Origin: Chiridota heheva
Lineage: Eukaryota > Echinodermata > Holothuroidea > Apodida > Chiridotidae
Direction of reading: 5' to 3'
Assembly (NCBI GenBank): GCA_020152595.1
Contig: JAIGNY010002073.1
Location: forward strand, 1,661,001-1,725,000
DNA length: 64,000 nucleotides
The notes beneath the pieces were generated by a model. It saw only the letters and a list, made by a program, of their open reading frames with translations. It was not told the DNA's origin and searched no databases. Each line of letters begins with the position of its first letter. The first letter of the stretch is position 1. The position numbers and the translations under genes are program-made. Shown in pieces: positions 2,804 through 55,519 of this stretch.

Positions 2804-2944
2804 ATGGGTTCAAAAGAATTTGGAGAGCATGTATACAGAGGGAACAACTCCTTTGACTGTGTTGTTGTAGGAGCTGGTATTGAAGGCTCATCCACAGCGT
2901 ACAATTTAGTGAAGAGTGGGTGTAAAACGTTACTCCTTGAGCAA
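2804..2944 (+). CDS. PIPOX: PIPOX exon 1 (start codon, FAD-binding fold)
   Basis: Encodes residues 1-47, starting [19 protein letters not shown] and ending in LLLEQ. The beta-alpha-beta dinucleotide motif [14 protein letters not shown] is complete, with the acidic residue that contacts the FAD ribose at position 46. The exon ends in phase 0 at a strong donor, CAA then GTAAGT. The ATG is chosen because it is the only one in frame ahead of the fold and gives the family's usual short lead. A possible 3' splice site (ttgcacag) lies 15 bases upstream of the ATG, so a non-coding first exon further 5' is possible but not shown. Confidence 0.95.
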
Positions 2945-5900: not shown

Positions 5901-8900
5901 TTTGTTTGTCTTAAAAAGTGATTATATAACAAGAAAGCAATTCATGGAGTTGCTAATCTCATCACCTTAAGCATACAGCATAGTGGGGGAAATAGCTAAC
6001 AGGGTCACTATAGATCTGAGACTTGACCCTGTGACCTCAGAGTCTAGGGGACACTAGTTCTGTGGCATTTGACCCCAGATTTATACGACACAAGTTCATG
6101 TACCAAGATATCATTGTGCAACATAGGGTTGGTACAGATCTTGCCCTCTTGGGACTTTAAAGTGGTACTAAATTGTACAAATTAACACATAATTACCTCC
6201 TAAAATTGTATATTTGACCATTGACCCTAACCACCAAAACAATATGTGGGTGATGAGATAACAACATCAGTATTTTTAAAGACTGCTGTTTATATGCAAA
6301 GCAGCAGATTAAGGATTTCATTATATTACATTGATAGCAAACTGTAGTATTATAAACTAACTATTTCAAGTTAATTTTGCTGAGAGCCTTTGGACGTTGT
6401 GTATATTATAGTTATCGTACATTGGTATATTTCAATACACCCAGTCATGTACATTATACTTACTGTACATTGGTTTATTTCAATACACACAGTCATGTAC
6501 ATTATACTTACTATACATTGGTTTGTTTCAATACACCTAGTCATGTACATTATACTTGCTGTACATTGGTTTGTTTCAATACACACAGTCATGTACATTA
6601 TACTTACTGTACATTTGTATGTTTCAATACACCCAGTCATGTACATTATACTTACTGTACATACGTATATTTTAATACACCCAATCATGTACATTATACT
6701 TTACATTGGTTTGTTTCAATGCACCTAGTCATGTACGTTATACTTGCTGTACATTGGTTTGTTTCAATACACACAGTCATGTACATTATACTTACTGTAC
6801 ATTTGTTTGTTTCAATACACACAGTTATGTACATTATACTTACTGTACATTCGTATATTTCAATACACCCAATCATGTACATTATACTTTACATTGGTTT
6901 GTTTCAATACACCTAGTCATGTACATTATACTTGCTGTACATTCGTATGTTTCAATACACACAGTCATGTACATTATACTTAACTGTACATTTGTATGTT
7001 TCAATACACACAGTCATGTACATTATGCTTACTGTACATTCGTATATTTCAATACACCCAATCATGTACATTATTCTTTACATTGGTTTGTTTCAATACA
7101 CCTAGTCATGTACATTATACTTGCTGTACATTTGTATGTTTCAATACACACAGTCATGTACATCATACTTGCTGTACATTGGTATGTTTCAATACACCCA
7201 GTTATGTACATAATGGCACAATGATATTGTATGTTACAATACACCCAGTCATGTACATTGGTATGTTACAATGCACACAGTCATGCAATACAAGGTCACA
7301 TTGATCTTCAAATCTTCTTTGAGTTCTTTTTTGTCTCTTTCACATCATTTGCAGGTGATATCATTATTGATTACTTTCAGAGTTACAATTTTGTTGATAG
7401 ATGGTAAATTTGTCACTCATTGATACAACAATATACCCAAGCAAAGCATTACTTGAATTTTGTCTATAAGTCAAAAATATAATATTTGGCTTGGAAATTT
7501 CCCCTGGCACCCCTCCTACACCCCCTCCTACACTCGCTCCTACACCCCTTCCTACACTTCCTCCTACATCTCCCTCCTACACCCCCTCCTACACCCCCTC
7601 CTACACCCCCCTCTTACCCCCTCCTACATCTCCCTCCTACACCCCTCCTACATCCCCTCCACACCCCCTCCTACATCCTCTTCTACACCCCCTCCTACAC
7701 CCCTCCTACATCCCCTCCCACACCCCTCCTACACCCCCTCCTACACCCCTCCTACACCCCCTCCTACATCCCCTTCCTACACCCCCTCCTACACCCCCTC
7801 CATCCCCCCTCCTACACCCCCTCCTACATCCCCGCCTACATCCCCTCCATACATCCCCCTCCTACATCCCCCTCCTACACCTATGTTGGTGTTGACATGG
7901 ATCCACAAATGTTTAACCAGGGACGTAGCTAGAAGATTTAAATGAGGGAGTGTAGATGTGATTTTTGCCAACAAAATACCTTTAGTAACATTATGTGCCA
8001 TAGGCGGCACCAGGCATGCATAGCATATGAAGGCATTGTATAATACTGTGGGTGATATGAATGGGAATACATCTTGCAAGTTGATAATCTGTGTTAATAA
8101 ATCTCTTTAGGATTGATTAAAATGCACAGCAATAGAGGCCCATTGAGGTAACTCTGAAATTGTGACTTACTGGTTTGTGTGCATACTGTACTTTTTATGG
8201 CTGTTGACGGTGTAAGAATGCTAGTTTTCGTTGATGCTTCTGGTGCACACTGATGTACATGTATTGTGTATTTCTGAAATGCAGTTAGGTCAAATGTCAG
8301 TAGTCAAATATGAAGAGTTCCTGCATATTTCCTGATACCGACCAAAGTAATTCTTAAGAACATGGTATAAAGTTCAAGCCTTGGTATTGACTGTTAACAC
8401 CCATCAAACAACCAAGGTGATGAATGCATACATCTAGTACAGTACATGTATGAATTGTACAATGCAAAGTATTTTGACAAAAAACGTTTTGTATTAAACT
8501 TTTTTTGTAATGCAATTCTATGTACTGTAGGTGTGAAGGTAAGTAAGTTCATCTAAGAACTTACAATCACTGTTAGCTTGTCAAGGTTACATGCTTGAAG
8601 TGAGCTTATTCATTTTTTTTTTGTAAGCTCATAGATGTTTCAATTGTTTGTCTGAATGGACAGCTCAAACTATTTTTGTAATTCTTGAAGTTCCTTCCAT
8701 ACAGTAAGTCTTGATCATGATTGGAAAGTATTCCCGCTAGATTTAAAATTATGATAAAGAATAAAAAGATAAAAAAAGATTTGCATAAAAGAATACGAAG
8801 TCCCACTGTAATATATCACATATTTGCATACAAATTTGCATATTGATGCCTTAGATGTCAAAATCCTGTAAAATTGTAAATTTTTGACTGCTTTTGATGA

Positions 8901-11900
8901 ATTTTTTGCTACTTTTATGATTCTTTATTAATTTTAAAGCAATTTAGCTACATGAATGTTGCCTTTATACGTCCACATACACCATACATATATTTAAGTC
9001 ATTTAGCTACATGAATGTTGCCTTTATACGTCCACATACACCATACATATATTTAAGTCATTTAGCTATATGAATGTTGCCTTTATACGTCCACACACAC
9101 CATACATATATATAAGTCATTTCAGCTGTGATCCCTTGTCTCCAAATGTACATATTTGTTGAATTTTGCTCTTTAAATTGTAACACCAAATACACATACT
9201 GTACTATTAGCTATCTGCATATATGTGAATAATACTTTTGCAAAAAATTGCCAAAAATGCTTCAATATTTCATATAGATTTTAAATTTGTCTGCCTTTCG
9301 TTTAAAATCAAATTGCAGCAAAAGTACAAAATTCCCTATTTATTATACCAATGCTGTGAAGCGATGTGAGATAATAAGAGCTTCATTTCATATTCTACTG
9401 CATGTCGGTTAAAGACTGCCTGTTTAATCAAATATAAAAAACGTGAAAATCTTGAGATTCTTGATTTGGATGTCAAACTTCCCAGAAATGAGGCCAAGCA
9501 CTTAATATCGAACATAGAGAAGGTGCCCAATCTTGATTAAAATCTTTTTGAATACTTTATGAGGCTCGCTCACATTACCAGGTGATTGCAATAGCGGGGA
9601 AGTATTGTCATGACTATTAATTTCATTTACTGTGAGATTGCTATAGAACAATCCATTTGACAATTTGCTATGTCCATTGCCTTCAGAAACATAATCCATT
9701 GCCTTCAGAAACATAATGCAGGTGTTTTAGAGGAAACTCAGGAAAGAAATATAATTGACAGCTGTTTGCTGCATTATTTGACATTCTGCATATGTCAATC
9801 AAGAAGAAAGTCTAGAACATTAAAATTACTTTCTGCTTGTTAAATTGTCGTACTGTATGAGGTGCCCAGTGTGTTTTCAGCTTTCAGATGCAATGCTCTG
9901 AGGCATTTGCAAATGGATAATTTTTATTGCAAGTCTGATACAAGTCAATATTTGTATGGCTTAAGTGTGAAGGAATTTGTGTATCATATAGAAAGACTGT
10001 GCTGCAACTGATCCTCGTATTTGACAGAAAGTAAAGATTAAATGAGGCAGAATAACTTAAGGTTGGAAATGTGGAAGATGTGAATTTCTTTTTATGAATC
10101 AAACAAAGTCTTTGAGGATATGTTTGATTTCATTTGATTATTTGTTGATTGACAAAGTCGGTAGTTCTTGACATAGGCATCAGAAACACGGTGGGGTGGG
10201 GTGGTGCCTGCTTTCAGAAGTGCATGCTGAAGTGTACTTCCCCCCCCCCCCTCCCACACTTTATACATACCATATTTGGAGCACAGTGGCCTAGTGGTTA
10301 AGGCGTCGGGCTCTGGTGTGGAAGGTACTGGATTCGATTCCCGGCCAGGCCAGTGTGTTGTGTCCTTGAGCAAGACACTTTATCTTCATTGCTTCAGTCC
10401 ACCCAGCTGTAATGGGTACCTGTGAGGGCAGTGACAGTGCTATGTGTTTGGAGCCCGGCGCCTGTATATGGCTGCTGATAAAACGGGCTTGTGACTCCCC
10501 AGGGAGTGAGAAAGTTTTCAGGAGAGTTAAGGCCCAGTGACCAGGGTAATAATTGTAAAGCGCTTTGAGACAGTCTAGGACAGTATAAAGCGCTATATAA
10601 GCATTACGATGATTATAAGCATTACGATTATATTTGTGTGTTTTTTACCTTTCAATAATATCTATAAATTAATGAAAGGTGTAGCTTATATACTGCAGTA
10701 GAGGATCCTTTGTATCTGCAACAAAAATATAGGTTTCTCTATTTCTGAAGTGATTGTCAAATGCTTTCCCAATGTTATAATTACAGCCTAATGATTTCCT
10801 GCTGCAGACCATTCCCCTGAATGCATTATATTGTACCTGTATATTTATCGTATGATCCCAGTTGAGCATTCTTACTACAAAATCTTATTATTTCCAAAGA
10901 GTGTCTGAAAGGAATATTCCCTTGAATTTTCTTTTTCATTTATGACCAAGAAGTATTAAAGAAAGAAATTGGTGGAAGAACCATATCTCATTCCCTTTAG
11001 GAGTTCATGCGTTTCAAAGAAAGTGTGTTGGAAGTGTGATGTCATAACTGCAGATCAAAAAAATGTTGATTTATTTCTTTGAAAATAAATTAACCGTATC
11101 TAAATTATTGAAAACAATTTTTGTTTCATTATTGAGGTTGGTATAATGTGCTCTTTACAAGAACCTGCTTTGCCCATCAGATCATGTACCTTACAATACA
11201 AATGAAAGAATTTTTTTAAATATTGTTATCTTGTATCTTCCTTTATGACATCACACTGTACACGGTGAGGTCACTTTTCAACACTCGCACAATCTTTGAA
11301 ATGCAATAACTCCTCAATGGATTAAGATATCAATGTGTGTTTTCACCAATATGTTTCTTTACCAGTCCACTATCATGAAAATGAAATAAATGGAGGCAAA
11401 ACAATAAGTATTTTTTCTATGTGTGTGTTTGGAAAGGGTGGAAGGGGAGGGGGGGGGGGAAGCCAGAATTGAAGTTTGAAACTTTTAGGTTCCAATTCGA
11501 CAGTGTCAGGAACCTACAGTATGCTGGTATGTGTGTGTATTGGCGTACGAGTGTTTGCATTTGTGGGTGTATGTGAGCTTAAGCACTATATATGCATTGG
11601 ATTCAGGTCATATGTGGTATATTGAGAGCCAATGGCCATAAATGTGCTCTATTGTTTGTAGTGGTATTAAGTAGTGGGCGGGCTTAATGTTGAAATGCTC
11701 ATATTTTAACAACTGCATGTCCATTTTGTTTTAAATTTCATACAATTACATGTATGTTGTTAGCTACTAGTGTGTACAACAGTTCATGGTACAAAAATTG
11801 TGAATATCATTAATAAACATAGGGGGCAGGGCTTAATACTGTACGTGGTTTTGTCCAAAGGAGCTTGTAAACACTTATCTCAAGGACAACTCATTATATT

Positions 11901-14900
11901 CAGATCATGTGGTACACATGTAACCCATGATCTGTATATCTACTGTTCTACTGTCTTGTTATTGGTGGTGATTTCATGCATAGTAATTAGTAGACAGGGC
12001 TTAATGTAAAAATCTTAAAGTCATCATGTTTTAACAACTGCATATCAGTTTTTGTTCATATTTGGTGTAATTTTGTTGTCAGCTAGTGTGTTCATGGTTA
12101 TGGTACAGTGTACATGTTGAATTTCATTAAAATGCCAGTGGGGGACGGGGCTAGCCTTAATGTGGTTTTGACAAAAAGAACTTGTAAACACAATATTTCA
12201 AGAATGATTTATATCACATGTGGTACACAGTTAGCCCGTGGTCCATAGAAATACCCTATTGTTTTTGTTGGTGATGTCATGAATATTAACGAGTGAGTGA
12301 TATGATGATGAATGAGGAACTGTAGGTCTGTTTTGCATTATATGTGTTATGATAATGTTATTAGTTATTATGTACATTCATCTGCATGGCTCTATTCTAT
12401 TTAGATGCATGGTTGGCATAGCTTATAAATTTAACATATATCATGATAATAATAATACATTTTTATATAGCGCATTATACCAAACGGTCTCAATGCGCTT
12501 TACATAAACAAATAAACATGAGAAAACCTTAAGATACAAACAGTAAGAGAACAAAAAACCATACTTAAAAAGATAGAAGCAGGATAAAGTTACGAGGTCC
12601 AATGATGGGAACTCATGAAAAGGTGTGTTTTCAATACACTCTTAAAAATATCTAAAGTAGGGGCATTTCTGATGTAGATTGGGAGAATGTTCCAGAGTTT
12701 GGGGGCTGCAGATTGAAAAGAACGTTCACCATAAGTCTTGGTGTTAATTTTTGGCGGCTTTAGGAGAATAGCACTGTTAGATCTGAGTGAGCGAGTTGGT
12801 AATTGTAAGGTGAGTAAGTTGGAAATATAATTTGGAGCAAGACCATGAATGGCTTTGTATGTGAGGGTGAGAAGCTTGTAGTTTATTCTTTCACATATAG
12901 GAAGCCAATGAAGTTGGTGGAGGATGGGTTTAATGTGAAATTTCTTACTTGTAAGAGTAACTAATCTGGCAGCAGTGTTTTGAATGCGCTGGAGCTTTGA
13001 GATTTGTTGAGAAGGAAGTCCAAATAAGATACTGTTGCAACAATCAAGTCTGGATGATACAAATGCGTGAATAAGTGTCTCAGTCGACTTTTGATCAAGA
13101 TATTTATGAATTTGGCTAATTTTTCTGATGGCAAGTGAAGCGGAGCGACATATATTATTTACATGTGGCAACAGTGTAAGCTTATCATCAAAAATAACAC
13201 CCAAGTTTTTAACACAGGAAACAGGACATATACATGAATTACCAATCATAACAGAGGAAACTGGAGTAGTGCTTAGAAAACGTGACGAAATATGAATTAC
13301 TTCAGTTTTACTCTCATTAATAATTAGTTTGTTGTCTGCAATGACTGTTGATATCAAACTTGAAAATCAACCAACATATGAAAGAATGCATTAGAACCAC
13401 TAAATCTGTTGGTTTTCTGGTTAGGGACAGAGGTGTAGAAAAGAAATTTAAAGAATTCCTTCAAAGGAGTCTGTTTATTACATCTTAAATGTATCTCTAT
13501 TAAACCTCTTTTATAATGTACAATGTGTTTGTTGTAACTCCTTTTATATTTGAATTTTCTTTCCCTCTAGTTTGCACTTCCGCATTCCCGGGGTAGCTCA
13601 CATGGTCAGTCAAGGATCACCCGTTATGCATACCCAGAGAAGCACTACGTTAAGATGATGGAAGAAGCCTTTCCAATGTGGGCGGAGCTGGAAAAAGAGA
13701 CAAAAACAACATTGTTTAGGTGCAGTTTTAATTGTTTTAATAAATTGACTAACCTACCACTGGTGCTGCTTACTCTTTACCTTAAAGTAGACTTATGACT
13801 TATAAATAGTATACAACGTCAAAAGAATCACAATCAAAAGTAATTTTTTTCCTGCTTGTATGTTGGTTAATGTAGGGAGATGCTCTAAGAAAAGGAGGAA
13901 ATATGATATGAAAGGAGACAAAATGTTGTTTGGGAATCATAAACTGCCAACTTGGACAATTCGTTGAGAGTTCAATCCACCAGTAACCCTTGGTTTTCCA
14001 TGGTACATTTATCTTATTTTTGCATAGTAACAATTTGAAAATTGTACCAATGTTGAAATGCAAAACAGGAATTGGTTAGTCTTTATCTCAATCAAATTTC
14101 TTTTGGCAGAAATACCGGCTTGCTCATCATGCAGAGACCTCCGTATAACGTTTACAACGAGCGACTTCAGAATGTTATTGCCACAGGTAAACCATACAAG
14201 GAATTAACCACCCAGGAACTCCGACAGCGATATCCTGGGATGAGTCTTCAACCCGACTACAAAGTGTTTCTGGATTTGTCTGCTGGAACGTTAAGGGCAG
14301 ATAAAGGACTAAAATGCTTCCAGGTAAAATGATTAAAGGAGACATAAAGTCAAATATTCTTCCTTGATGTATTACAGAGAATTAAAAAAAAAACTAAATA
14401 CCAAAAACCCCATCATAAAATCTTAATCCATTCTCAAGTTTCTAAGTTTGTTGTAACATGGACACTGCTATTTTGTGTGGAATTCATGCCAGTGATAATA
14501 TAATTTTTCTTTAAAAGTTTCTTTCCAAACTACTTTGACATGAAGTTTTAAAGGCTTGAATCATTAATATCATATATAGATGCAAATTCATAGACCCATG
14601 TAAAGAAATTATGACTTAGTAGAAGGTAGAAAATTTCAAATATTTAAATTTGATAATATTCTTATCTGTACTGGGTATATGACATCATTTTTTAGAGGGT
14701 GTGTGAACAAAATGGCTGCTCTCATGTAAGTTTATAAGAATTAACATTTTGATAAATTAGAAAATATATGCTCAATTGTTTTGCATAATTGAAATTTCTT
14801 CAGAGGACTTATAACTATTTCTATCATATTAAGTAAAGAAAAAGCCAGACTTTTATGTCTCCTTTAAGTATTGTACTGAAGATTGTAGAGAATAGTGGTG

Positions 14901-17900
14901 GTGTTTTTCAGAAAATTTATATCCAGAAGCTGATTTTGTTTTTAAATATACTTCATTAAGTTATTTTGATTTAAACAACAAGATAGTGACAAAGCATTTA
15001 CATGATAGTACAAATCAACACCCATTTGGTAATACTGATTGCTCTTATTTACATTATGTTTATTTCTTTGTCTTTTGTTTGAAAGCAAGAAAAAAAAAAA
15101 TTTCATTTCAAATGAAGAAAGTTAAAAGATTTCTCTTTATATCTTGTATAAAGGATGAATTTAAGAGGAGAGGGGGTATTATTCGTGATGAAGAGAAGGT
15201 GCTTCACATTATTCCGGGGACAGAGGTCACCATCCAGACGACAAAGGGTCAATATTTTGCCAAGAGTATTGTTCTTACTCCTGGTCCTTGGGCTTCCAAG
15301 ATGTTGAAGCCTCTTGGTCTCAATCCTCCTCTGCAGGTAAGAATACACAGTTTTTATTTGACAGAAGATAAAATGAAGTAAAATAAAACAAACTAAAATT
15401 AAATTAAATTAAAAAAATTAGGTTTCAAAATAATCTTTTTATTCAAAATATTGGAAATTGATTAGAGGGTATCCCTATTTGTTTGAAAAAGATTTTGAAA
15501 TCAAGAATATGATTAATCAGGATGATTTCAGGTCTTTAATATTCTTTTCATTAGATCAAAGATATTTTCAAATCATTTATAAAAACATGTTGGAATATTC
15601 TGGAAATGTGAAATCTTCACTCTTTTCTAACTTTAATTTATGTACTGAAATAATTGGTCTGAAAACCACATGTTCAGTTTGCTAAAACAGTGCCAACCAC
15701 AAACAAACAATTACATTTTTCAGGTGGTTCAATTTTAAATTATAAGAAATAGTTGAAATTATACATTTTGATTAATGTATTTAATATTATGTCTGTCGAA
15801 AAATGAGAGAAAAGTGTATGTGTAGTGTCCCATTGTTGGTGATGTTGGTATTTTGTACATATTTTATCATGTTTTTGGACGAGCCTGTTTTCATGACGTA
15901 AGTCAGCCAGATTTTGATGTTGCACGCTCTCTTGCCTTTTGGAGCTTGCTCTGATAAGACGTATTTCAAGCAATAGTTTTTAAACATTAACCTTAACTTA
16001 AAATGATTAATATTAGGGCTGTAAAAACCATCTAACATTAAAGTTTGCTCTCTGGCGTGGTTTTGGGTTTTGCTCGTTTAGAAGCAATTTTACATAGGTT
16101 TTAGGAGCTTCAAGCAATTTATCTTGAAACATCTTTTGCCCTTGGGCATTAACGTAGCATAACTGCATTACCCTAGTATAGGCCTGCCGTAGCGTAACCT
16201 TAGGCCTGTTTAATGCTAGCTTCGGCTCTGTATGTCTATCTCCCTCCACAAAACCTTCACTCTTTGCAATATCTATCTCCCCCAATGCCAACGTTTAACC
16301 AAGCAGCCTTAACAACCTCAACTCTCAGCTCCCCTCCCCCTTTATCCTTCTTGGTGACTTCAACGCCCACAAACCCCTGTCGGGCTCCCAATACCACCAC
16401 CCCCAGAGGCAAGCTCATCGAAAACACTCTTCGACAGCACAGCTTCTCCTTGCTCAACACTAACTCCCCAACCTACCTTCACCCTGCCACAGGATCCCTC
16501 ACCTGTATTGACCTGTCTATCTCTTCCCCCAATCTCCTCCTTGATTTTAGCTGGAAGGTCACTGCTGATCTCTGTGGTAGTGACCATTACTCTCTTCTTA
16601 TACACTCCAACCTTCAAACCCCCACTGACCACACCCCCAATTGGAACCTCGAGAAGGATGACTGGCCCCTTTTCAAAACCCTCTGTGACTCGCACCTCTC
16701 CCTCTATCTCCTCCAGGGTGAGGATCCCATGTCATAACATCATTATCAACATTGCCACCTACTCTATTACCAAAACCTCCAAACCCCCTAACCACCCTCT
16801 CCCCCTCCCGAACCCCTGGTTCTCTGATGACTGCAAAATCGCCATCAAGACAGAAAAAGCGCCCTCAGGAACCTCAAAACTAACCCGACCACCCACAACC
16901 TCAACCTCTTTTGCATCAGCCGAGCCAAAGTCAGGCGCACTATCAAGGACAGTAAAACCAACACTTGGAACAACTTCATCTCTTCTCTCACCACCAACAC
17001 CCCCACTAAGAAGATTTGGAGAACCCAACCATTGCAAATCAATTTTGGGGAAATTTTGGTGAAAAAATGAAAATTACTTATGTTTGGCTCTATTTTACTC
17101 TGAAATCCATCAAAAAAATGACCCCCATTAAAACCGAACGGTTCGAATATGAAAAAGTCAATGGAGTTTTTTCAAATTATATACAAATTACCTCCGTATC
17201 AGTTTGGTATGGTCCCGAAATTATTTATTGAAAATTGCACTTCCAAATCGACAAAAATCATGTTGATCCAGCGTTTAAGTGCTGATAGCTTCTCATCTGG
17301 AGGGCCATGACTGGAGGGCCATGATCGCCAACGCCAATGTCTGTTCCAGACTAGGCACCTAGAGAGAGAGAGCTTCTTATCTAAATTCCTTCTTCAAATA
17401 AAAAAGTGATTAATGTGTGTAGTCTATTCATTCAGAAATTATGAAAGCTTCATGAATTTTAATTTGAAAATAAATGCTATTAATATTATTACTAACGATT
17501 CAACAACTTTATGATACCTGTATTTGATATTATCAAAAATTTCAATATGCAGATTGATTTGCCTTTGATATGATTATTGTTGTTTCGATATCTCTGAAAT
17601 TTGTCATTTTTCATCGCTTACTAGATATATATTTATACATTGTGCATAGGAGGCATTTTCATCGATCAAATTGTTCCATCCGTAAATGCCAAACAATCAA
17701 TTCATGTTTTTTTACGATTTATAATTCATTCTACACTTTCAGTTTTGTTTTTGTGTTCTTTTCATGAAAAGAACATTTTTGATCATTTTTTTGTGAATAA
17801 TTTCTTGTGATGAAATCTTTTTGCTTTTTCTCATTCTTTTATCCAAGTTTAATTTACCAAACATCTATACATGTGTCCCTTTGCCCCACATTTGTTTTTA

Positions 17901-20900
17901 ATAATGTGAATATAGAAAAATACTTACCACTTAATTCTTAGGATAATAAAAAAAAGCAAAGATATTTCTCAGTGTTGCCATGACAACAGGTTGTAATTTT
18001 GCAGCAATTACAAACTTTGAGGATTGTTGAAAGCTAACATAAAGAGTGAAGCTTAGTCTCATGAGTATTGTGCCAAGTGGTTATGAGATTTTAGTAAAGG
18101 GAAATAGATTTTTTTTTAAATTCAATAATGTCCCAGTGTAATCACATTGGTTCAACAGATACTGTACTTTATTTCTAGGTTTGCTTACTTAAGAGAAAAT
18201 GATCTAAAATGTACATAAAGATATTATTTGAAGATACCTAAATTTTATCAATGCATAGTTTTGTTTACTTTTCAATTCGTTTCAATTTTTATTCTTCATT
18301 TTTGTGAAAGCTAACATAAAGAGTGAAGCTTAGTCTCATGAGTATTGTGCCAAGTGGTTATGAGATTTTAGTAAAGGGAAATAGATTTTTTTAAATTCAA
18401 TAATGTCCCAGTGTAATCACATTGGTTCAACAGATACTGTACTTTATTTCTAGGTTTGCTTACTTAAGAGAAAATGATCTAAAATGTACATAAAGATATT
18501 ATTTGAAGATACCTAAATTTTATCAATGCATAGTTTTGTTTACTTTTCAATTCGTTTCAATTTTTATTCTTCATTTTTGTTAGCATTTTTATCATTCCTA
18601 CACTTATATTGGGCATAAATCTATGAAAACATAATGTATGACACGTTATATAATTAATCTCAGTTCATGTAATAAAAATCATAATGCAAATTAAAGTGAA
18701 AAAGCAATGTAACAAATTCCATTTAAATATCAAGTAATACCAGTAATGATTGATGGCATTTAAATAAATGCTAACAAAAAATGCAAACAGCTATTAGTTG
18801 ATTAATTTAAGTGCCTCATATTTTGAAAGATTTATTTGCCATGGACCATTTCTTTTGTGTCATTATGAAAAGTCAAATGCCTCCCATGTATAAAAGTGGG
18901 CAAGATGGAAATTGCTTCTGTAGTTGATAAGTAATATTTATGAAGTATTTAAGAACACATTTATAAAGTAGGGCAGTATCTGAAGATGCCTGAAGAATTA
19001 AAGGGAATCAATTCTTGATTGGATACTGCAAGTTCTGTTGGTGGTGAAATAGATTGAATTGTAAGATGGGTATGAGACAGAATTCCAAATTCTATGAAGA
19101 AGAAATGCTGATTCTGATGAGTTAGTGACAGACAGCAAGAGACAATAGTAGATACGTTATCTGAAAGTCAATTAAAAACATGCAAAAAAACAGCAAATTC
19201 TACCAAAACCAATTAGAAAACTTTCAAGTTTTTTTTTATCAAGGGAATATTAGGGATGTCATCAGTTGGCTTAATCAATTGACTAGATAACAATTTACTT
19301 TGTGAATCCTATTGGACCATAGCCTATGGCCTTTTCTTGTTACTTATTGCTTCAATGATGTAATATTCCCTCTTACTATGCACTTCATAAAGTGGATTAG
19401 TGTGCATTACTGGAAAACTAAATGTGCTTATGAGGGTATGCCTTGATGACACGCTGGAATTGAAACTTGTATCTGGAGTTGCCACATATGAATACACTGC
19501 TCCTTTAAAGTATTGTTTTAGCTAAACAAAATTGTGGCACTTTCAGTGGTCATTTTGTGCATGTCACGTAACAAGTTATGCATTTGATAGTGTTTAGCAC
19601 ATCTAATGGTAAATACACCACAATTTGAAGTGTTTTCAGACTTTGTTGTTCGTGATTGTTGTTAAAGAGAAATACCATCTAACTTACCATGTAAAAAATT
19701 AATGAAAAGGACCTTAACAAAAGTTCTGTGTTACGAAAAAGTTTTCAACAAATCTAAGGTTTGAAATTTTGAATGGAAAGAGGTTTCGCAAGGTTATGTT
19801 CAAGTTCAGATAATTTGATGGTCGTTCCTTTATAAATGAAGTCCATCTAGAATCTGTTTTCATTCAATTTGACCATTACTTTTTTGGCTATGATGTTTGA
19901 AATTTTAAAACTTTCAGGCATCCATAATAGCAATCACATACGCCAAGCTTTAAAATATAAAATAACATTCATTGGCATGCATTTTCCCTTTCATATTGTG
20001 TCATATCTTGGTGTCGTATATACATCTTGGTCAATCAATTAGTAATGCTGCTCATAAAACTTTTAGGCATCCCTAATAGCAATCACATACACCTAGCTTG
20101 AAAATATGAAATAACATTCATTGGCATGCATTTTCCTTTTTATATTGTGTCATATCTTTGTGTCATATATACATCTTGGTCAATCAAATAGTAATGCTGC
20201 TTATGAATAATTCATAGAAAAAAGTAAGCATGTAACCAGATTATAAAAATAATATATTTGAATCCTGAACAGCAAACATTTGAGCTATTTATTAATGAAC
20301 AAGAGCAAAGGGTCATGATGATCATGGTTTATTGTTGTCTTTATAGTCTTCTCATTGTCCTTTCAATTGATCTTCAGCCTCTTCGAATGCAAGTTCTTTA
20401 TTGGAAAACCAAGAGCAACTTCCAGAATATGCCTTGTTTTATTGACGATTCCCTTGGGAAAAAGCATATATATGGGCTAGGTCCGCATGAATATGACAAT
20501 TTATTCAAGGTATTCAGCGGTAAATATGATAGCATGTGTAAAAAAATTTTTGTGAAGGTGCTTACTAAAACTTCTATTTATTTTTTGGGTGCTGGATCAT
20601 TAATACTATCTGCTAACACAACCACACATTAACAGTCTTATTTTTTTTTTACTCTTCAATTAACACAGGTCATAATTGTAGAAACGTGTATAGTAACAAA
20701 TTATTTCAATTACACTGGGTGTATTATGGAATACTTACTTCCAATGTACACCTATTACTATTAATTCACATATTCCTAGAGCACAATGTCACCTATGACT
20801 CAAACCAAATCTTATTTTCTCATTCCTGATATTGTTATGAGACTGTTTTTTTACTTGCAATTTTGTACGTTTCAAAATTGAGAATTCTTTAACCATCTCA

Positions 20901-23900
20901 GTTGTATTTAATTTGACTGTTAAAATGTCGTTTATTGACCCTATGAAAATAAGTAGGGTCATACTATAGGCAAAGTTTCGGAAAAGCTTAAATCAGGAAG
21001 TTTTTCAGTGGAAAAATATTTTAAAGCTTTTCTCATTGTGAAATAATTAAAATTTCCTAGTTAGGTGGGTTTTATGCCTGATTTTTATTTTTTTTAATGT
21101 ATTTTTTATTTTGTTGAACCTAATTTCAGTGAAATATAACTGAACATTCATGATAATAAATCAAAATTATTATACAAATGATATTTCTTTTGAAAGATGA
21201 TATCAGATATTTATGACTGTAACATTTCTATCATACTGTGATGAGTGATTATCTGGTAGATGCACATCCCATACACATTGTAGTTTTTTAAGTTATTCTA
21301 TATACAGTATTCTAGCACCTCAACACACATTCAAACCAATTCTTAGTTCTCAAAATAATCATCTTTGAATCACAGCAAGCTTTCATCAGAGATGGTTTTA
21401 ATCTGAAACTGACACCAGTTACTTTTTGATTCAAATGCTGTTGCTCGTGATGCCCGTTGATGCTCATGAGGCTTAAGTCATTAGCATGAATGAATTTTGA
21501 TTCCTCGAAGGGCTGGAATGAACTGTTGTGATAAAAGACAAAATTATAACATGTATGATGCATTTCAACATAAGATAGCAATTAATGGTAAGTGCAGAGT
21601 GTGCTGGGAGACAGGGAGTGATGGTATGTGATATTTAGATTTCAGCAAGATCTGTCATTTAATATTTGTGAAAATGCACAGCAAATGTTAAGGGATTGTA
21701 AGAAGTGAATATTTTTAAGCTCAGCAGGATATGATGCTTATTGCTGGTCTATGCAAAGTATTGTATAGTAGGTTTATCATGGAAATATAGCATGGATCTT
21801 TCAGTTCAATAATTCCCCTGGAGTTAATGGCTAGGTGTCATTGAACTGTGTTTGTTAAGAAAGGTTCTATGATGTCATGGTATGCTGTGATTTATGTGTA
21901 TCAATTTGTATGTGCTGTTGTGAACCCATTAAAAGTAACTTTTGTTTTCTCTTGTGATATTTTTTGAAGATTGGATTTCTTCACATCACTTTTGAAACAT
22001 GAGTTGTAGTGATGTGACACATTGATGAAAAGTAATCAAGGGTAATGAAAACATATTGTAACATTATCACCATATTTGTTATGAACAAATGTTGCAGTAA
22101 TTTGCATTATGCAAACAATAGGTTTTCCTTCATTTGTCTTTCATTGTAAGTATTTTGATTGAAAAGTATAAGATGTATTAAATATCAGTGATAATTTTCA
22201 GTGCAAAGCAATGAGCTACTTAAATATTTCAAATGAAGAATTGTTGAAAATTGTGTGTAGTTTCTTAAAATATACCTATGGTTGGTACCTGTATCTATGA
22301 TAGTGTTTTGCTATTCATATCACTACAAAGAGAAGGAAACTGGAAAAAGACATCTCCAACCAAGTTTGTTTTATATTTGTGGTTAATTTTCAAATGGATT
22401 TAATATTTCTTGTATCTTTTCATTGATGTATGGTATTCTAGATACACTTATTTCCACATACCCACACTTTGCTGCAAATTGATCATGACATCTTATCTCA
22501 TGAAACACATCAGTACCTACCGAACAACAGCTCCGACAAGTCTTTCAAATGCACCTAAAGTTGCTATTGAATGAAAATACTGTTGGTTACTGTTTGGGAA
22601 TCTGAATTAATTAGCTGTTTTTGAAAAATGCATGGAGCTTGATTAGACAGGTACATTTAAAATGCTATTTTTTTCTCTCTTCATTTCTTCATAACAAGAC
22701 ATGGAAGTTACATGTGTGTTACTGGGAGGAGGGTTATGGTGATTTTCATAACATGCCATGTATCGTGGATGACACCCAGGGAAAGAAGCAGTTTTATGGT
22801 CTGCCAGTTCATGAATTCCCAAAGCTTTTCAAGGTAGACCTAGACAAAGACCCTTCTCCCCTGCCCTAAGAATGATTTTTATCCTGATAAGTGTCAATCA
22901 TGACAATAAGTGTACCACTTGATGTAGTGCATGGTAGACTGAAGTAGAGTTATTTCTGTGTGTGCATTGAATTCCTGCATCTACCAAGCTCCATGTTTCT
23001 TGTCTTAAGTTCGGATATACATCAAATTTGAAGAATTTATGCTAGCTGCTTACAGTATGTTGTGTTATTCTAAAAAGATGAACAACTGAAAAGATAATCA
23101 ACAACAAAGTGGCCCTAAGATCACTGCTGTTGTTTAGTTTGTTTTAGTTGTTTCAGATTATCTTACATTTTTCAAAAATGAAAAAAAAGGTTTCATGCTA
23201 AGTGGTGCTGGTTTAATCAGTTTGAATAATTATGCATGTATTAATTAAATTGCCTTGATTAGTACACAAGTCCTTAACTTTGGTATCTCTTACTATTTGA
23301 GAATTGCTCTTGAATCATATGCCTATATTGTTTGCTGGTTGTCAGTTCAAATTTTCTCCTCTCCAAAAGCAAGTGTCCTTCTACTGAGGGACACCTTGTT
23401 AGATCACACTTTGACAACAGTTTTCTAACAAGCTGTGTATGTCTGTTTTATAGCTTGTTTATAAATAACCTGTGAATATAATCTAAGAATTGGTTTGAAT
23501 TGAACACTACACAGCTTTTTCCTTCCTGTTGCAAAAGCTATCTTTTTCATTTCTTTGTTTGAGTGTCATGTACTGTGTTTGCCATTTAATGTAGCTCTTT
23601 TAGTTTTGAAGTTGTCCATGCATCTTATCAGAACTTTGTTTTGTGTAGCAGCACTCATTCAGTCTTTAGTTGTTAATGTTCTGTCTTTCCCCAGTGAATC
23701 ATAATCTTTAATTTTGTTGCTGTACTGTCTTGTTTGATTTGTGGCTATGCTTTTGTTTTCATATCTAGTGCATTATTAACCTTATTTCTCATTTGGAAAT
23801 ATCATTATCTTCGTATGCTTGGTTAAAAGTGGGAGGAAGAAAATTAGCAGAGAAATAAAAGATTCTAGGTTTTGTAAGAGACAAGAATTCAATTTGTCTT

Positions 23901-26900
23901 ATGAGAAATCTGTTTAGGAGTATTTGTGCTATATATAGCATTGCAAAATCATTTGATGATGATATGTTTAGGAAACTTCACCCAAAGTGTTAAGCTTTTG
24001 TTAACAATTACAGAAAAATAGAATAGAGAATACACATAGTTCTGATTCTCTGTTTTTGTGTGCAACTTTCTCCTGGGACCAAACTTTGTACAAACCAATC
24101 ATATGGTATTTGAATTGTGATGATTTATAACAGAAATGTCACAGCAAGTTTTGAGCTTGCACATACTAGGGCACTTTTTTAAAAAAGATGAAAGAATTGA
24201 AATGAAGTTATTTCATATTTAAAGATCTTGAAGAGCCCTAAGTTGAGAATGTTTCATTTAGCTTTGACATTTTAACAGGCTTTGTGTATTTCAGAACCTG
24301 TGCAAAAAATAAAAAAACAATTCAGTTCTGAGGCAATTTTTTTAAGTCATTTCAGCTGAGCTGAACAACAGCAGCTACTTTCTATTAAACCATGAATTTC
24401 TTCCTCATCATGTGACTAACCAGCTATATTCTAAAAGCTATTTTTATCCGCTTCACTGCTTAAAAATAATTCCTTGTATTTACATGAAAGCCCTCTGAAA
24501 GGTAAGGTTTTTACAGGAAAGATTGAGGTAAGTTACACTCCGCTTCATTCTGGAAGTCTATGCTATGTTTGTTTCCAGTCGTTTTGAAACTTTTAATTCT
24601 TTTCCAGTCTCTCCGAATGAATGTCTATTACTGGAAGGAGAAAAAAGTGCACGAATTTTCGAATTTCCCTTGTGTGATAGATGATTCTACCGAATTATAT
24701 GGTCTACCGCCCCATGAGTATGATGGATTGATGAAGGTATTCCCAATTCAAACAATTCATATTTTGCCAAGTTTATTTGAATGATACGGGTACAGAACTA
24801 TATCAGAAACCAAATAATAGGAGAAAGTGAATTTGCTACATAATGGATTAAGTGTTGTATCAGTTGATAAACTCACTTTATCAAAGAGAGACCTCTGTGG
24901 TCTAGTGGTCATAGCATCAGCTCTGCATGATGGAGATCCTTGGTTCAATCAGGGGTGGGGCTTGTGATGTTTATTTGTACTTTGTATAACAACTTTACCC
25001 ACCCTCTACCAATAAATGCTATGTCAACATCTGCTTGACAAAATTTGATAGTCTTATGATTGGGGGGCAAAATACTAGATTTTTGTTGATTGAGGGGGCA
25101 AGTAACACTAATGAAAATTATTGGAGGGCACTTGCCCCTCCTTTCGACCTGCCACTAGCTTTAATCCCTAGTGGGTCTTCATTCACCATGGTGAATCATA
25201 GTTTCTATGAAACGATCCTGCTAGGCTCTCAGGCTTCAATTTCTCCATAAATTTTGTAATAGCCAAGGTCATCATGTTGAGAAAAAGATGCAAATCCTTA
25301 AACTACCAACCTACCCGATTTAAGCAGATAAACTCATTATTCTTTAAAGTTTATCCATTTCTCCCAGTGCAAAACAGTGTCTTGTATACACTGCAAAATT
25401 TTCAATTATTGAAGAAATGAAGGTATGGTTTTGTAGTAAAGGATGCTGAAATGCTCCTCAGGGGTAGACAATTATTATTTGAATACTTTCATATCCTGTG
25501 AAGAAAATTCAATTTATTTTACTAGCTGTTTGCAAGGGTAGATCCATGGGTGATTTTTGGGGGGCCATCCCCCCTCCCCCCAAACAAATAAATATAATTC
25601 AAAAAAATAAAATGATAATAAATATAATAATAATAATTATTTAATATAATAATAATAAATAAATATAATAATAATAACAATAATAGTAACAATAATAATG
25701 GCAATAATAATAAATATACTAATAATAATAACAATAATAATAATAATATTATTAATGATAAGTCAGGTTTACAAAATGTCCTTAGGTAGGCCATGGATTT
25801 GTATGTATATTATACATGTTTGAATTCAGGACAACGGTATTTTCCCTAATTTTTCTATGTTATTTGAGTATTCATTAAATTAATTATCATTCATTAGCAT
25901 TACTTTAGTATTACTTTAGTGATTTGTTCTCCCATTCAATTACATATGTGCCACCGATGCTATACACTGTTTTTTTATATGGTTTTGTGTAATACGAATA
26001 GACCTAACTTATGGGAAAATGGATTTTTCATACTATCTCCGATGGTTGGCAGAGTGGATGGCATAGGAAAAAGTATAATAAAAATATAAAATATGTTATC
26101 AAAATGGAATATTTTGAACCTACAAAATGCCCCAAATTAATTGCCCATGGACAATAACAATCTGGTGTGACCAATTTTGGCCCCCAAAAATCACCCTTGG
26201 CTGTTTGCATACAATATCGATTTTTGCAGTAAGCGTTATCTTTAAATTCAAATAAATACCCATATTGAATGGAGGAAAGGGGTGGTACTCAACCTTTACA
26301 TCATATATGGATGACTTAAGGTCTTCATGACGCCATCTGTACTTTTTGGTAGCTATTGGTGTGGGAATGCTGAGTAATAACAAATATATTAAAAGGATTT
26401 ATTATACACTGCTGTGTTATATGTGAGTTCCTATCCATGATTAAAACTTATGTCATTTATGGGAATTACATCCATGCTGGCCATCTTTAGGAATTCTATG
26501 CCAACCATTGCCAGCTTCAGCATCTACATCTTTTGTTAAGGTACTTGAATTCACAAGTAACCTTTTGGGCCCTAACATAATTTTGACAGGTTTGAAGTAC
26601 GATGGCCATTCTGCTCGATTTTTTTCTGTGGAGTTAGTCATGTATAATGAATGTAAGTAGTCAAGAGTGCTAGTATTGGAGGATGAATTATTGACCGCTA
26701 ACACCTGTAGATTGCAGCAGTGAACGTTTATGCTAAAAATTCTGAGCAAACACATTAATGGGGAGCACGGTATTCATACACATATATATTGCAGACATAC
26801 TGTACCACTTACTACTGCACCTTATTATATCCCTCTCTGGAAGTACTAAGCACATGTATTAATTGGAATTATAATAGCATGTTGTTTTTGTGAAAGATAT

Positions 26901-29900: not shown

Positions 29901-32900
29901 TTGGTGATGATGTCACGCATTTTAATGAGTGGACCGGGCCTAATGTAAAAGTCTTGAAATGCTCATTTTTTAACAACCTCCTATTCGTTTTGTTTCCATA
30001 TTTGGCATAATTTTGATCTTAGCTAGTGTGTATGTGTTAATGGCTTAAAAACATTGAACATCATCAATATGTGTAGTGGGCTGGGCTTAATATGATTTTT
30101 CTGAAAAGAACTTATAAACACATTATCTCAAGAATGATAAGCTGCATTCATGTCATATGTAATACACAGATAGTCCATGGTCTGTAGATTTATCCTATTG
30201 TTTCTGGTGGTGATGTCATGCATATTGAGTAGGCAGGCTTAATGTAAAAATCTTAAAAGTCATATTTTAACAACTGCATGTTTGTTTTATTTCATATTTG
30301 GTTTAATTATGATGCCAGCTGGTTTGTTTATGCTCATGGTATAAAATTGTTGAATTTCATTAACATGCACAGTGGGTGGTGCTTAATGTAGCTTTGCTGG
30401 AAAGAACTTGTAAACATAATATCTAAAGAATGATAAACTGGATTCATGTCATATCTTGTACACAGATAGCACATGATTCGTATATGTGCCCTGTTGGTTT
30501 TGGTGGTGATGTCTTGCATATCAATTAGTCAGTGGGCTTAATCTAAAAATCTTCAAATGCTCATATTTTAAGAAATACATGTTTGTTTTGATTCATACTT
30601 AGTACATTTATGGTTTTAGATAGTGCATACATATTCATGGTATAAAATTGTTGAATATCATTAATATACATAGTGCATGTATATTACCGGTATACAAAAA
30701 ATAATATTGTGGCTAAATATGGTATTGCTTAAAAATCTTGTAAACACAGTAACTGTAGGACAGTACATTGGACACAGGCCATATGTGGTACACAGATAAT
30801 CCATTATCTATTTGCATGCCCTATTGTTTTTGGTGGTGATGTCATGCATATTACTAAGTGGGGAGGAGTGCCAATATAAAAAAAACAAATCTTGAAAAAG
30901 TGATAAATTGATAACAACCATATGCCTGTTAGCATCATACTTGCAAGTTGTTTGTCAGTTATTGTGTACATGCTTGTTGACAACAGGTTCTATCACCAAT
31001 ATGCATGCCTTAATGTGAAAATGCTCCAAAAAAAACTTATAAACACATCACACACATATCATATGTTGTACACAGATGATTTATGATCCATATACTAGTA
31101 TGTGACTTGTTTGTGTTGGTAGTGATGTCATGTAGGTGGGGCATTATGTAAAATTCTTCAAAACAGTGATAAATGTGCAACCCAAGGGCATACTGCTGAA
31201 ATAGATGTAATTGGGTAGCGTGAAGGAGGTTTTGCCAACTTAAAGTGAAACTATGGTGTCTGAGGTCATGCTGTAGTACCTTGCTAATATACATCGTCCT
31301 TTTATTAAGCTTATAGTCAACAGGTGGCCTGCAGTGGAGTCGTCATAGTTTTTGGATTTGATACCAAATTTAATAAACCCATGCTATGGAAAAAATATTT
31401 TTTAGAAGCTAGAAAATTTGAAGTAGATTATTAAGAAATACATTAATATTGTAATCTGTACTGGGTGTATGATGTCATTTTTGAGAGGGCATATGAACAA
31501 AATGGCCGCTCCCATGTAAGTTTATATTGACAGAATTAATGTTTTAATGAATAAGATAAATTTGATGAATTGTTTTGTATGATGTGAACTTTCTGTAGAT
31601 GACTTATAATTATAATTTCTATCGTAATAAATTGATTGATCTTCCTGGTATTTAGTGCTTTTTTGAATTGCTTGCAGGCATCCATTGATCTTTATTAGAA
31701 GTAAGGTACATCATACTTAACAAATTCCAAATGGATTTGAACCAAGAATGGTGTAATTTATAGCCAAAAAGTGACACCTTTAAGCTCCTTTGATACCAAA
31801 GAGGCATAGTGTGTAATATATATATATAGTAGGTGTTACTGTTTCTAAACTTAAAGCAAAGTATTTAAACTAATAGAAGTAAAGAAACAGAATACTGGTT
31901 TTTATTTTTGATTCAGGTGACTCCGGATTGGGAAGTCATTTTGGACACACACCCGGTGTATCCTAACATTGTCATTGGTTGCGGGTTTTCAGGTAAGTCC
32001 ATTCTAACTTTTGTCTTTGCAGTTTTTTTTTGTTTTTTTTAGTTATGTTTTTAGCTCAACCAACACAGAGTGTTGTGTTGAGGTTATAAAATTGTACAAG
32101 AATTTCACTTACAATTTTGTAACCTTTTTTTTGTTTTGAAACCTGGTCTTGAAATTTTGGCTCATAGAAGATGGTATCTTCTATACTAATTCTTGTATTT
32201 TGTTAGGTGTGAATCATTGAAATTTTGTAGTTATGGCTACTAAAAGGTGCAATTTTAGCTCGATCATTCGAAGAATAGTAGAGCTATTCTACTACCTCCG
32301 GCGTCAGCGTTTGGTAAAGTTTTGGTTAAAGTTTTCATAACATGAATGGTGTACATTCATGTGACTTGGCATATGGGTACAGAACATGGCACTGTTGAAA
32401 TGAGCATGATTGGAGGGTTGTGTGTGCATACTAACTAGCTTATTTGCATAACAATGAGAATGTTTGTCAGATTAAAGTTTTGGTTAAAGTTTTCATAACA
32501 TGAATGGTGTACATTCATGTGACTTGGCATATGGGTACAGGACATGGGTACTGTTCAAATGAGCATGATTGGAGGGTTGTGTGTGCATACTAACTAGCTT
32601 ATTTGCATAACAATGAAAATATTTGTCAGGTTAAAGTTTTGGTTAAAGTTTTAATAACATGAATGACATACATTCATGTGACTTGGCATAGGGGTAGAGG
32701 ACATGGGTACTGTTCAAATGAGCATGATTGGGGGGTTCTGTGGGCATACTAATTAGCTTATTTGCATAACAATGAAAATATTTGTATCTATGATATCTCT
32801 TGAATTAAAGTGGGAGTGGAGATTTTGTTTACACAAATAAACATGTGAAGACCATTGCTACACTTAATGGTGAGGTGTAATGTGCATAATAATTAGGCTA

Positions 32901-45019: not shown

Positions 45020-46440
45020 TGGCTGGTTAATGTTGGACCAACATTAGGTTAACGTAGACAGCATACATTGGTCAAACGTTGGCCCAATGTACGTTAGCTC
45101 AAGAATCCTCTAGCTTTTGATGGTGTTGATACAAATAATATCCTTCAGTGTTATTAATACGTCGTTTGAGATTTGTTTTGAATTGACACTATCCATAGCT
45201 AGAGGTAGTTTGGTACTTCCTGGCCTTAGTACCGTCGGACTGTGTTACTCAGTATGGCTGTCATTAGTGATAGCTAGGCTGGCCGTTGTTGACTTGTTTA
45301 GTACCGTTGGACTGTGTTACTCAGTATGGCTGCCATTAGTGATAGCTAGGCTGGCCGTTGTTGACTTGTTTAGTACCGTCGGACTGTGTTACTCAGTATG
45401 GCTGCCATTAGTGATAGCTAGGCTGGCCGTTGTTGACTTGTTTAGTACCGTCGGACTGTGTTACTCAGTATGGCTGCCATTAGTGATAGCTAGGCTGGCC
45501 GTTGTTGACTTGTTTAGTACCGTCGGACTGTGTTACTCAGTATGGCTGCCATTAGTGATAGCTAGGCTGGCCGTTGTTGACTTGTTTAGTACCGTCGGAC
45601 TGTGTTACTCAGTATGACTGCCATTAGTGATAGCTAGGCTGGCCGTTGTTGACTTGTTTAGTACCGTCGGACTGTGTTACTCAGTATGGCTGCCATTAGT
45701 GATAGCTAGGCTGGCCGTTGTTGACTTGTTTAGTACCGTCGGACTGTGTTACTCAGTATGGCTGCCATTAGTGATAGCTAGGCTGGCCGTTGTTGACTTG
45801 TTTAGTACCGTCGGACTGTGTTACTCAGTATGGCTGCCATTAGTGATAGCTAGGCTGGCCGTTGTTGACTTGTTTAGTACCGTCGGACTGTGTTACTCAG
45901 TATGGCTGCCATTAGTGATAGCTAGGCTGGCCGTTGTTGACGTCTTTTGACAAGCTGTAGCCTACGATCAGCTACGAAAAGTTATCTGAGAACTTGACGT
46001 GGTGACAAAACACTGTTTTTGCAGAAATTATAATTATCATAGTAGTATTTGTGTGAAAGTAAACATCTTTAGGCAGACATACATACGATTTTCATGTGAA
46101 TAGAGAATTTCCAATGTGAGTAGGCCTATTTTGTTACGAAAAGTGGCTCTTAACAAAGTGTGTGGAAGCTCTTTCCTTTTTGATTATCACCCGATGTCGG
46201 GTGAGCATTCATATACTTAACCATTACAAAAAGTGTATAGGCTGAGATCGTAATTTCCTCCGACTGTGATGGGGCGCGTAATAACAAACAAATGCAAATT
46301 GTCAAAAAACAACAATTGAATGAAACTGGATACCTTGCCCACTGTCGGAGAATCTCGGAGTAGCCCAACGTATTATTGCCAACACTACGCAATGCCAACG
46401 TAAACATACGTTGCGCCAAAGTTGGCCCAATATAGTGTGT
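45020..46440. mobile_element. Possible element enclosing the 72-bp minisatellite
   Basis: Related motif clusters lie on either side of the minisatellite: CATTGGTCAAACGTTGGCCC at the left (45066-45085) and CGTTGCGCCAAAGTTGGCCC at the right (about 46410-46429), with further CCAACGTA/ACGTTGG words nearby. TTGGCCCAA is self-complementary. This suggests matching ends of one mobile unit, but no target duplication was found. Confidence 0.4.
45227..45944. repeat. 72-bp minisatellite, ten near-identical units
   Basis: TAGTACCGTCGGACTGTGTT begins units at 45227, 45299, 45371, 45443, 45515, 45587, 45659, 45731, 45803 and 45875. I see only three single-base differences across the ten units (one of which creates a TGA in the open frame in unit six). 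The unit is 24 codons long, so it reads open as STVGLCYSVWLPLVIARL then AVVDLF. No start context, splice sites or flanking coding sequence support a gene. Confidence 0.97.
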
Positions 46441-55025: not shown

Positions 55026-55519
55026 TCAAGAATTGTTAAAGATACGACTAATTGCAACACATACAAGCATAATAACCACACTAAAATGCGCTAAACCGGC
55101 TCCGCATGTCACTGACATACAGACTGTCCTATCCAGGGTATTACCATCGAATTTCCAGTAAGCGCTAGCATGAGGGGCAATGGTGGCGCACAGGTATTCA
55201 AAGTCATCACAGTCGACATCAGTAAGGTCATAGTTAGCAGCTACTCCAGCTAAGGTAATTGATCCACCATTCTGAAGATCTTTTGTAAGCTGAGCGGACA
55301 AAATTGTGGCACTTGACACGGAGGCAACAGGGTTACTTCCGGAGTCGGATGCAGACAGGAATGTTGTTACTTTCCAGTTTTGGGTACCGACGATGTCATC
55401 ACTTGAAGAGGTACTGGACAAACCAACATCGAACTCTACGGCTTGACCGCCTCCGACGTTCAAGGTGCCGTCATCTGGGTTAGTGATGGTGAGGGAGTCG
55501 ACGCCAACATCAGCAGTGG
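55026..55519 (-). CDS. Secreted protein exon 3 (domain 2, anchor, stop)
   Basis: Starts (A)TADVGVDSLTITNPDD after acceptor aattttag and ends FNNS then stop at 55026. The four-Cys pattern DVDCDDFEYLC ... CMSVTC repeats that of exon 2. A 19-residue hydrophobic stretch near the end suggests a GPI signal or membrane span. The exon upstream region also reads open as MIDCRLIIAFIVLILATADVG, a signal-like peptide, so an alternative start inside the preceding intron (55565) could give a one-domain secreted isoform; the splice join is preferred. Confidence 0.87.

What the first reader, a model, noticed from the sequence alone, without database searches (positions are those of the whole stretch)
19387..24736. 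Three interchangeable exon-5 copies in a peroxisomal sarcosine/pipecolate oxidase
Between exon 4 and exon 6 lie three intact, homologous but divergent exons of 132, 135 and 129 bases, each phase 0 at both ends with usable splice sites. Only one is needed to complete the roughly 395-residue enzyme. Vertebrate PIPOX, as I know it, has one such segment. Mutually exclusive use would give three isoforms differing only in a piece of the substrate domain, a compact way to diversify a metabolic oxidase. All three lengths are multiples of three, so double inclusion or skipping would not cause frameshift, and the introns are too long for steric exclusion. Some RNA-pairing or factor-based mechanism would be needed.
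Basis: partly seen in the sequence, partly recalled or inferred. Interest (0 to 1): 0.85.

Follow-up and report, generated by a model that had tools for sequence, protein, structure and literature searches.

The report
Three swappable exons in an oxidase
A gene for a small-amine-oxidizing enzyme in what looks like an echinoderm carries three intact, old and apparently still selected copies of one exon that builds part of the active site, so splicing could make three versions of the enzyme, although no RNA data were available to show it.

Summary
A peroxisomal sarcosine/pipecolate oxidase-like gene (window + strand, 2804-38139) has three intact, homologous exons between exon 4 and exon 6: 5a 20378-20509 (132 bases), 5b 22699-22833 (135) and 5c 24608-24736 (129). 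All are phase 0/0, GT-AG and stop-free, and any one gives a 394-396-residue enzyme. They are 43-63% identical in protein, but third codon positions are 25-41% identical against 71-83% at second positions: silent sites are near saturation while the protein is kept. A fourth, decayed copy lies upstream at about 19380-19510, a natural negative control; the given start sits on it. The two closest paralogous genes of the genome have one intact exon 5 each. The exon corresponds to MSOX residues 220-265: strands of the substrate-domain sheet, Tyr254 and, as last codon, the oxygen-activating Lys265, kept in all three. Mutually exclusive use is the best inference but is not shown: no host transcript was found, and frame, steric and U12 explanations fail while RNA pairing gave no signal. 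New member of a known kind (tandem exon duplication in an enzyme core, as in coq-2 and Khk).

The parts
2804..2944 (+). exon 1 (start codon, FAD-binding GAGIEGSS motif)
   Evidence: translation and GT donor
13571..13719 (+). exon 2
14110..14323 (+). exon 3
15154..15336 (+). exon 4
19380..19510 (+). decayed fourth exon-5 copy (pseudo-exon, closest to 5b): an 8-base gap breaks the frame and the exon end is one base short of the AAG-GT of the intact copies
20378..20509 (+). exon 5a, 44 codons, ends in the Lys265-equivalent codon
22699..22833 (+). exon 5b, 45 codons, ends in the Lys265-equivalent codon
24608..24736 (+). exon 5c, 43 codons, ends in the Lys265-equivalent codon
27149..27304 (+). exon 6 (His269- and Cys315-equivalents)
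31917..31992 (+). exon 7
38003..38139 (+). exon 8, to the stop codon; C-terminus ...SNL
   Evidence: one search used a start one base late

Best explanation
Exon 5 of a PIPOX-type flavin oxidase was duplicated in tandem at least three times long ago. Three copies have been kept as functional alternative exons and one has died. Each mature mRNA most likely takes exactly one of 5a, 5b or 5c, giving three enzymes that share the FAD-binding part and the flavin-linked cysteine but differ in about 44 residues of the substrate-domain sheet around Tyr254 and Lys265, and so in substrate preference or kinetics. Shown by computation: the exons, their intactness, the constraint on the protein, the residues conserved, one intact exon 5 in the two closest paralogues. 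Inferred: one-at-a-time use (from the protein fold, which is unlikely to tolerate omission or doubling of these strands), choice by splicing factors according to tissue or stage, and the functional difference.
For: Three phase 0/0 GT-AG exons, each completing an uninterrupted enzyme. Codon-position identities 5a-5b 0.59/0.77/0.25, 5a-5c 0.66/0.83/0.41, 5b-5c 0.52/0.71/0.31; in simulations of neutral divergence to the same nucleotide identity, protein identity as high as observed was reached in 0 of 1559-1616 kept runs for each of the six directions. Omega = 1 is rejected on each terminal branch, weakly (2dlnL 4.32, 4.17, 4.23 for 5a, 5b, 5c). Decayed copy as control. Last codon is Lys in all three and in 118 of 120 listed homologues, aligned to MSOX Lys265 for 5c, with 5a and 5b in register with 5c; the Tyr254 counterpart is likewise kept in all three. 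11, 13 and 13 of 16 near-invariant positions kept. In the modelled relative P0001 (mean pLDDT 92.7) residues 220-264 cover most of strand 219-230, strands 240-243 and 251-254 and the start of 262-267; its best PDB matches are sarcosine oxidases, MSOX first.
Against: No protein near-identical to this gene was found, so no transcript of this species with any of the three joins. All lengths are multiples of three and all seven combinations tried stay open, so nothing in the frame enforces exclusion. No docking/selector pairing above control windows. Branch tests are individually marginal, uncorrected, and with branch lengths at or near their bounds. The intact relative P0001 keeps only 9 of the 16 near-invariant positions, so that count is no sharp test.
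Confidence: 0.72

Rival explanations
1. One copy is the working exon and the other two are rarely used or dying copies, as the fourth copy already is.
For: A dead copy exists beside them; no transcripts seen; similar neighbouring exons are often not used exclusively (PMC5740500, passage).
Against: All pairs keep second positions and protein far above neutral expectation at near-saturated silent sites, so no copy is likely to have been free of constraint for long; splice sites, frame, Tyr254 and Lys265 counterparts are kept in all three.
Confidence: 0.15
2. The exons are alternative but not exclusive: some mRNAs carry two or none, perhaps regulated.
For: All seven combinations tried stay in frame; no exclusion mechanism was found.
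Against: Skipping would drop the Lys265 counterpart and several strands of the sheet; double inclusion would insert a second set. Such proteins are unlikely to fold (inference).
Confidence: 0.11
3. Assembly artefact or fragments of tandem whole genes.
For: Intron 4 does contain tandem duplications that look recent (18028-18580, 99% matches; 19906-20201, 92%).
Against: The exon copies are only 52-63% alike in DNA; stretches of 900-930 bases around the copies share only short weak matches; exons 1-4 and 6-8 each occur once in the window.
Confidence: 0.02

Closest known systems
coq-2 exons 6a/6e of C. elegans and helminths (PMC7434440; abstract and one results section read)
   Same: Two mutually exclusive internal exons of 134 nucleotides swap part of an enzyme core by the substrate path, and the splice form governs which quinone is made.
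   Different: Two exons, not three; a polyprenyltransferase; exclusive use supported by RNA sequencing and function by genetics, here neither.
Ketohexokinase exons 3A/3C (PMC6464065; passages read)
   Same: Usually exclusive internal exons of a metabolic enzyme; the C form has greater affinity for fructose; use differs by tissue.
   Different: Two exons, shown by RNA-seq in mouse; a kinase, not a flavin oxidase.
Vertebrate PIPOX and bacterial monomeric sarcosine oxidase (MSOX)
   Same: Same enzyme family: alignment over nearly the whole length at E 2e-59 to MSOX; catalytic residues kept.
   Different: The two closest paralogues of this genome have one intact exon 5; the exon layout of vertebrate PIPOX was not tested; bacterial MSOX has no introns (general knowledge).
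Tandem-exon-duplication mutually exclusive exons in general (PMC5740500, PMC9013439; passages read)
   Same: Neighbouring, similar, same frame, similar length (difference up to 20 residues allowed), GT-AG, no in-frame stop: the prediction criteria in the passages read are met.
   Different: No RNA support, which the human survey used to validate its cases.

Membership tests
Mutually exclusive exon cluster (tandem duplication type) | neighbouring homologous exons of similar length in the same frame with usable splice sites | tested here: met
   criteria from passages of PMC5740500
Mutually exclusive exon cluster (tandem duplication type) | exactly one copy per mature transcript | not testable with these tools
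   no host transcripts
Mutually exclusive exon cluster (tandem duplication type) | exclusion by frame/NMD (one known mechanism, not required) | tested here: not met
   132, 135, 129 bases; seven combinations tried stay open
Mutually exclusive exon cluster (tandem duplication type) | exclusion by steric interference or U2/U12 incompatibility (known mechanisms, not required) | tested here: not met
   introns 2189 and 1774 bases; no U12 donor at any exon, two loose motifs elsewhere in introns
Mutually exclusive exon cluster (tandem duplication type) | competing RNA pairing, docking site and selectors (known mechanism, not required) | tested here: inconclusive
   the best candidates (-25.7 upstream, -28.2 downstream) are equalled by 0.7% and 0.3% of 2112 control windows while up to 1178 windows were scanned; no related genome to test conservation
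PIPOX/MSOX family flavin oxidase | FAD-dependent oxidoreductase fold, homology over nearly the whole length | tested here: met
   PF01266 E 1.1e-47 with 5a, MSOX E 2e-59 with 5c; the model of relative P0001 matches MSOX best. In NCBIfam TIGR01377 is the best match but below its cut-off (404.8 of 479.65 bits), while NF008425, N-methyl-L-tryptophan oxidase, is above its own (281.9, cut-off 257)
PIPOX/MSOX family flavin oxidase | Lys265 (oxygen activation), His269 and the flavin-linked cysteine | tested here: met
   alignment; role of Lys265 from text and reference titles in PMC5459902; His269 from a PDB title; the role of Cys315 is recalled
PIPOX/MSOX family flavin oxidase | peroxisomal targeting signal at the C-terminus | tested here: inconclusive
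   ends in SNL, not the SKL/AKL that several homologues carry
PIPOX/MSOX family flavin oxidase | oxidase activity on sarcosine or pipecolate | not testable with these tools
   needs expressed protein

The most novel reading that the evidence does not exclude
Exon choice switches not only substrate preference but the oxygen chemistry of the enzyme. The closest relative found (P0001, an unnamed assembled sequence that pairs with this gene at 98% support) carries a 5b-like segment whose last residue is Gln instead of the oxygen-activating Lys. If its gene also has other exon-5 copies with Lys, the animal could make an oxidase and an oxygen-insensitive form from one gene by splicing; the three host exons would be an older or different state of the same switch.
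Probability: 0.08. Interest if true: 0.8.

Novelty: new member of a known kind. Interest (0 to 1): 0.52.

Why it matters
Few metabolic enzymes are known (to my knowledge) in which alternative copies of one exon swap part of the active site; coq-2 and Khk show that such swaps can redirect metabolism. A triple set in an amino-acid oxidase would let one animal gene cover several N-methyl or cyclic amino acids, and the junctions are simple to test. Three searches of the held open-access library pairing sarcosine oxidase or PIPOX with exon or splicing terms listed 1, 12 and 0 papers, none of which describes such an arrangement in its title or the start of its abstract (listings only); searches on mutually exclusive exons in echinoderms and sea urchins (listings only) showed none either. 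Most subscription papers are not held.

Tried and rejected
A possible fifth relic in intron 1 (9910-9978) scored 26.5, reached by 26 of 40 simulated sequences: rejected. Competing RNA pairing: no signal above control windows. U12 introns: rejected. U1 duplex energies do not set the three alternative donors apart from the six constitutive ones (-5.7, -6.5, -5.7 against -11.6 to -4.8). Host transcripts: none found (all three searches used; each sees only proteins of 0.55 to 1.75 times the query length). Naming the species by mitochondrial cox1: no match in the assembly. Exon-5 tree with the relative P0001 (12 sequences): 5b+P0001 77% support, but one host clade is not rejected (AU p 0.39), so the duplication is not dated. 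In one search nine of the ten pairwise omega fits failed at their bounds and were dropped; only the tree-based tests and the pair 5a-5c (omega 0.13) stand. P0044 and P0003 (S. purpuratus) differ inside the exon-5 segment; P0044 is flagged low quality by its source, so it was not used.

Full report
What is there. The window belongs to a 1.1-Gb assembly of 3744 contigs. The best protein matches of the gene are an unnamed assembled sequence (P0001, 61%), then Diadema, Strongylocentrotus, Amphiura and Asterias, so the host is most likely an echinoderm; its class was not determined. The gene has eight exon positions on the + strand from 2804 to 38139. With one copy of exon 5 it encodes 394-396 residues without an internal stop: a member of the FAD-dependent DAO family (PF01266, E 1.1e-47), closest among solved structures to monomeric sarcosine oxidase, MSOX (E 2e-59). 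Most of its named animal relatives are called peroxisomal sarcosine oxidase.

The three exons. 5a (20378-20509), 5b (22699-22833) and 5c (24608-24736) lie in order between exons 4 and 6, each phase 0 at both ends, with AG acceptors (CAG, AAG, CAG) and GT donors. Exon 4 itself also uses an AAG acceptor. In a six-frame search of the whole window they match each other at E 3.5e-12 to 7.5e-8; all other matches are at E 0.02 or worse. Each of the other exons finds only itself at a significant level. The introns between the copies are 2189 and 1774 bases long. Stretches of 900-930 bases around the four copies share only short weak matches outside the exons, the best being 75 bases at 71%, E 6e-5, T-rich and out of register, so the duplications look old.

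A dead fourth copy. At about 19380-19510, in front of 5a, there is a fourth copy, closest to 5b. It aligns to 5b from the acceptor region to the end of the exon with a score of 43.6, reached by 0 of 3000 resampled sequences (2 of 3000 for 5a, 216 of 3000 for 5c); among windows of the 64 kb outside the exon-5 copies the best scored 38.5. With a frameshift-tolerant profile it scores 32.3; 1 of 40 simulated 64-kb sequences reaches that. The whole-window tests alone are therefore modest; the end-to-end alignment together with the position carries the case. An 8-base gap in the middle breaks the frame, and the end of the exon is one base short of the AAG-GT of the intact copies. The start given in the finding falls on it. 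It shows what an unconstrained copy in this place looks like.

Selection. Nucleotide identity is 54% (5a-5b), 63% (5a-5c) and 52% (5b-5c). By codon position the identities are 0.59/0.77/0.25, 0.66/0.83/0.41 and 0.52/0.71/0.31: third positions are at or near the random level while second positions are kept. Protein identities over the aligned codons are 48, 63 and 43%. Neutral simulations at matching nucleotide identity never reached them (0 of 1559 to 1616 kept runs in each of six directions); only 5.5-13.4% of those runs were free of stops. A codon-model test with the paralogues as outgroup rejects omega = 1 on each terminal branch only at the nominal 5% level (2dlnL 4.32, 4.17, 4.23), with branch lengths at or near bounds, so the simulation is the stronger argument. 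The intact copies keep 11, 13 and 13 of the 16 positions of the segment that are at least 90% conserved among 120 listed homologues; the relative P0001 keeps 9.

What the exon encodes. The alignment of the 5c form to MSOX places exon 5 at residues 220-265 (counted from the printed alignment). The counterpart of Tyr254 is conserved in all three copies, and the last codon of each, AAG, is the counterpart of Lys265 (5a and 5b by their alignment to 5c). Lys265 is the oxygen-activation site of MSOX (text and reference titles in PMC5459902, passages); PDB titles list Lys265Met, Lys265Arg, Tyr254Ala and Tyr254Gly mutants. In a model of the relative P0001 (mean pLDDT 92.7) the segment, residues 220-264, makes up most of strand 219-230, strands 240-243 and 251-254, and the start of strand 262-267. 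Skipping it would remove the catalytic Lys and these strands; doubling it would insert a second set. This is why one-at-a-time use is the most likely outcome, although all seven combinations tried stay in frame (5a+5c was not among them, but both lengths are multiples of three).

Controls in the same genome. The two closest paralogous genes (contigs C1142 and C3) have an exon 5 with the same phase 0 boundaries and one intact exon 5 each. A frameshift-tolerant scan of the 26 kb and 20 kb held gave second-best scores of 22.4 against 127.0 (C1142) and 31.4 against 122.0 (C3); 2499 bases of the C1142 stretch read N. In the same scan the decayed copy of the window scored 29.8, so the C3 value is in its range, but that place lies upstream of exon 3 of the C3 gene. 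More distant DAO-family genes of the genome were not examined. In a tree of 34 sequences without exon 5 (31 of the 120 listed homologues and three host genes) the host gene pairs with P0001 (98%), and the two paralogues pair with each other elsewhere (100%).

How the choice might be made. Frame, steric and U12 explanations fail on lengths, intron sizes and donors. A scan for a docking site complementary to regions beside all three exons found nothing beyond control windows. What remains is regulation by splicing factors, or RNA pairing that only comparison with related species would reveal. In the human survey of Hatje et al. [quoted passage not shown] this cluster falls in none of these groups.

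What is missing. The full-length search (1574 matches, best 120 listed, best 61% identical) and two searches with exon 4-6 and junction peptides (15 matches, at most 54% identical; and none of 445 candidates) returned no protein that could be this species' own. Expression and exclusive use of the three exons are therefore inference.

Place among known systems. It works like coq-2 in nematodes (mutually exclusive 134-nucleotide exons in the enzyme core; PMC7434440, abstract and one section) and Khk (exons 3A/3C; PMC6464065, passages). It meets the sequence criteria for a predicted mutually exclusive cluster in the passages read, but the RNA criterion could not be tested. New here, as far as my searches reach, are the enzyme family, the number of copies, and the catalytic lysine sitting on the exchangeable exon. 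I rate it a new member of a known kind.

Noticed in passing
P0001 (relative), residues 220-264: The closest relative has a 5b-like segment of 45 residues ending in Gln where 118 of 120 listed homologues have Lys; possible oxygen-insensitive form.
   Followed up: partly
window 18028-18580 and 19906-20201: Two tandem duplications in intron 4, units of 275 (99% matches) and 149 bases (92%), close upstream of exon 5a: local tandem duplication seems to have gone on here until recently.
   Followed up: partly
window 55026-56633, minus strand: Two stop-to-stop frames of 180 and 210 residues that resemble each other (both hold a PDD motif and LTDVDC), one with a hydrophobic start: perhaps a secreted protein with repeated domains.
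   Followed up: no
window 45226-45941 and 6400-7259: Long minisatellites: 9.9 copies of 72 bases at 99%, and 18.2 copies of 48 bases at 85% in intron 1.
   Followed up: no
P0044 against P0003: Two sea urchin (S. purpuratus) models that agree up to the middle of exon 5 and then differ; the source flags P0044 as low quality, but a second exon-5 copy there is worth a look.
   Followed up: no
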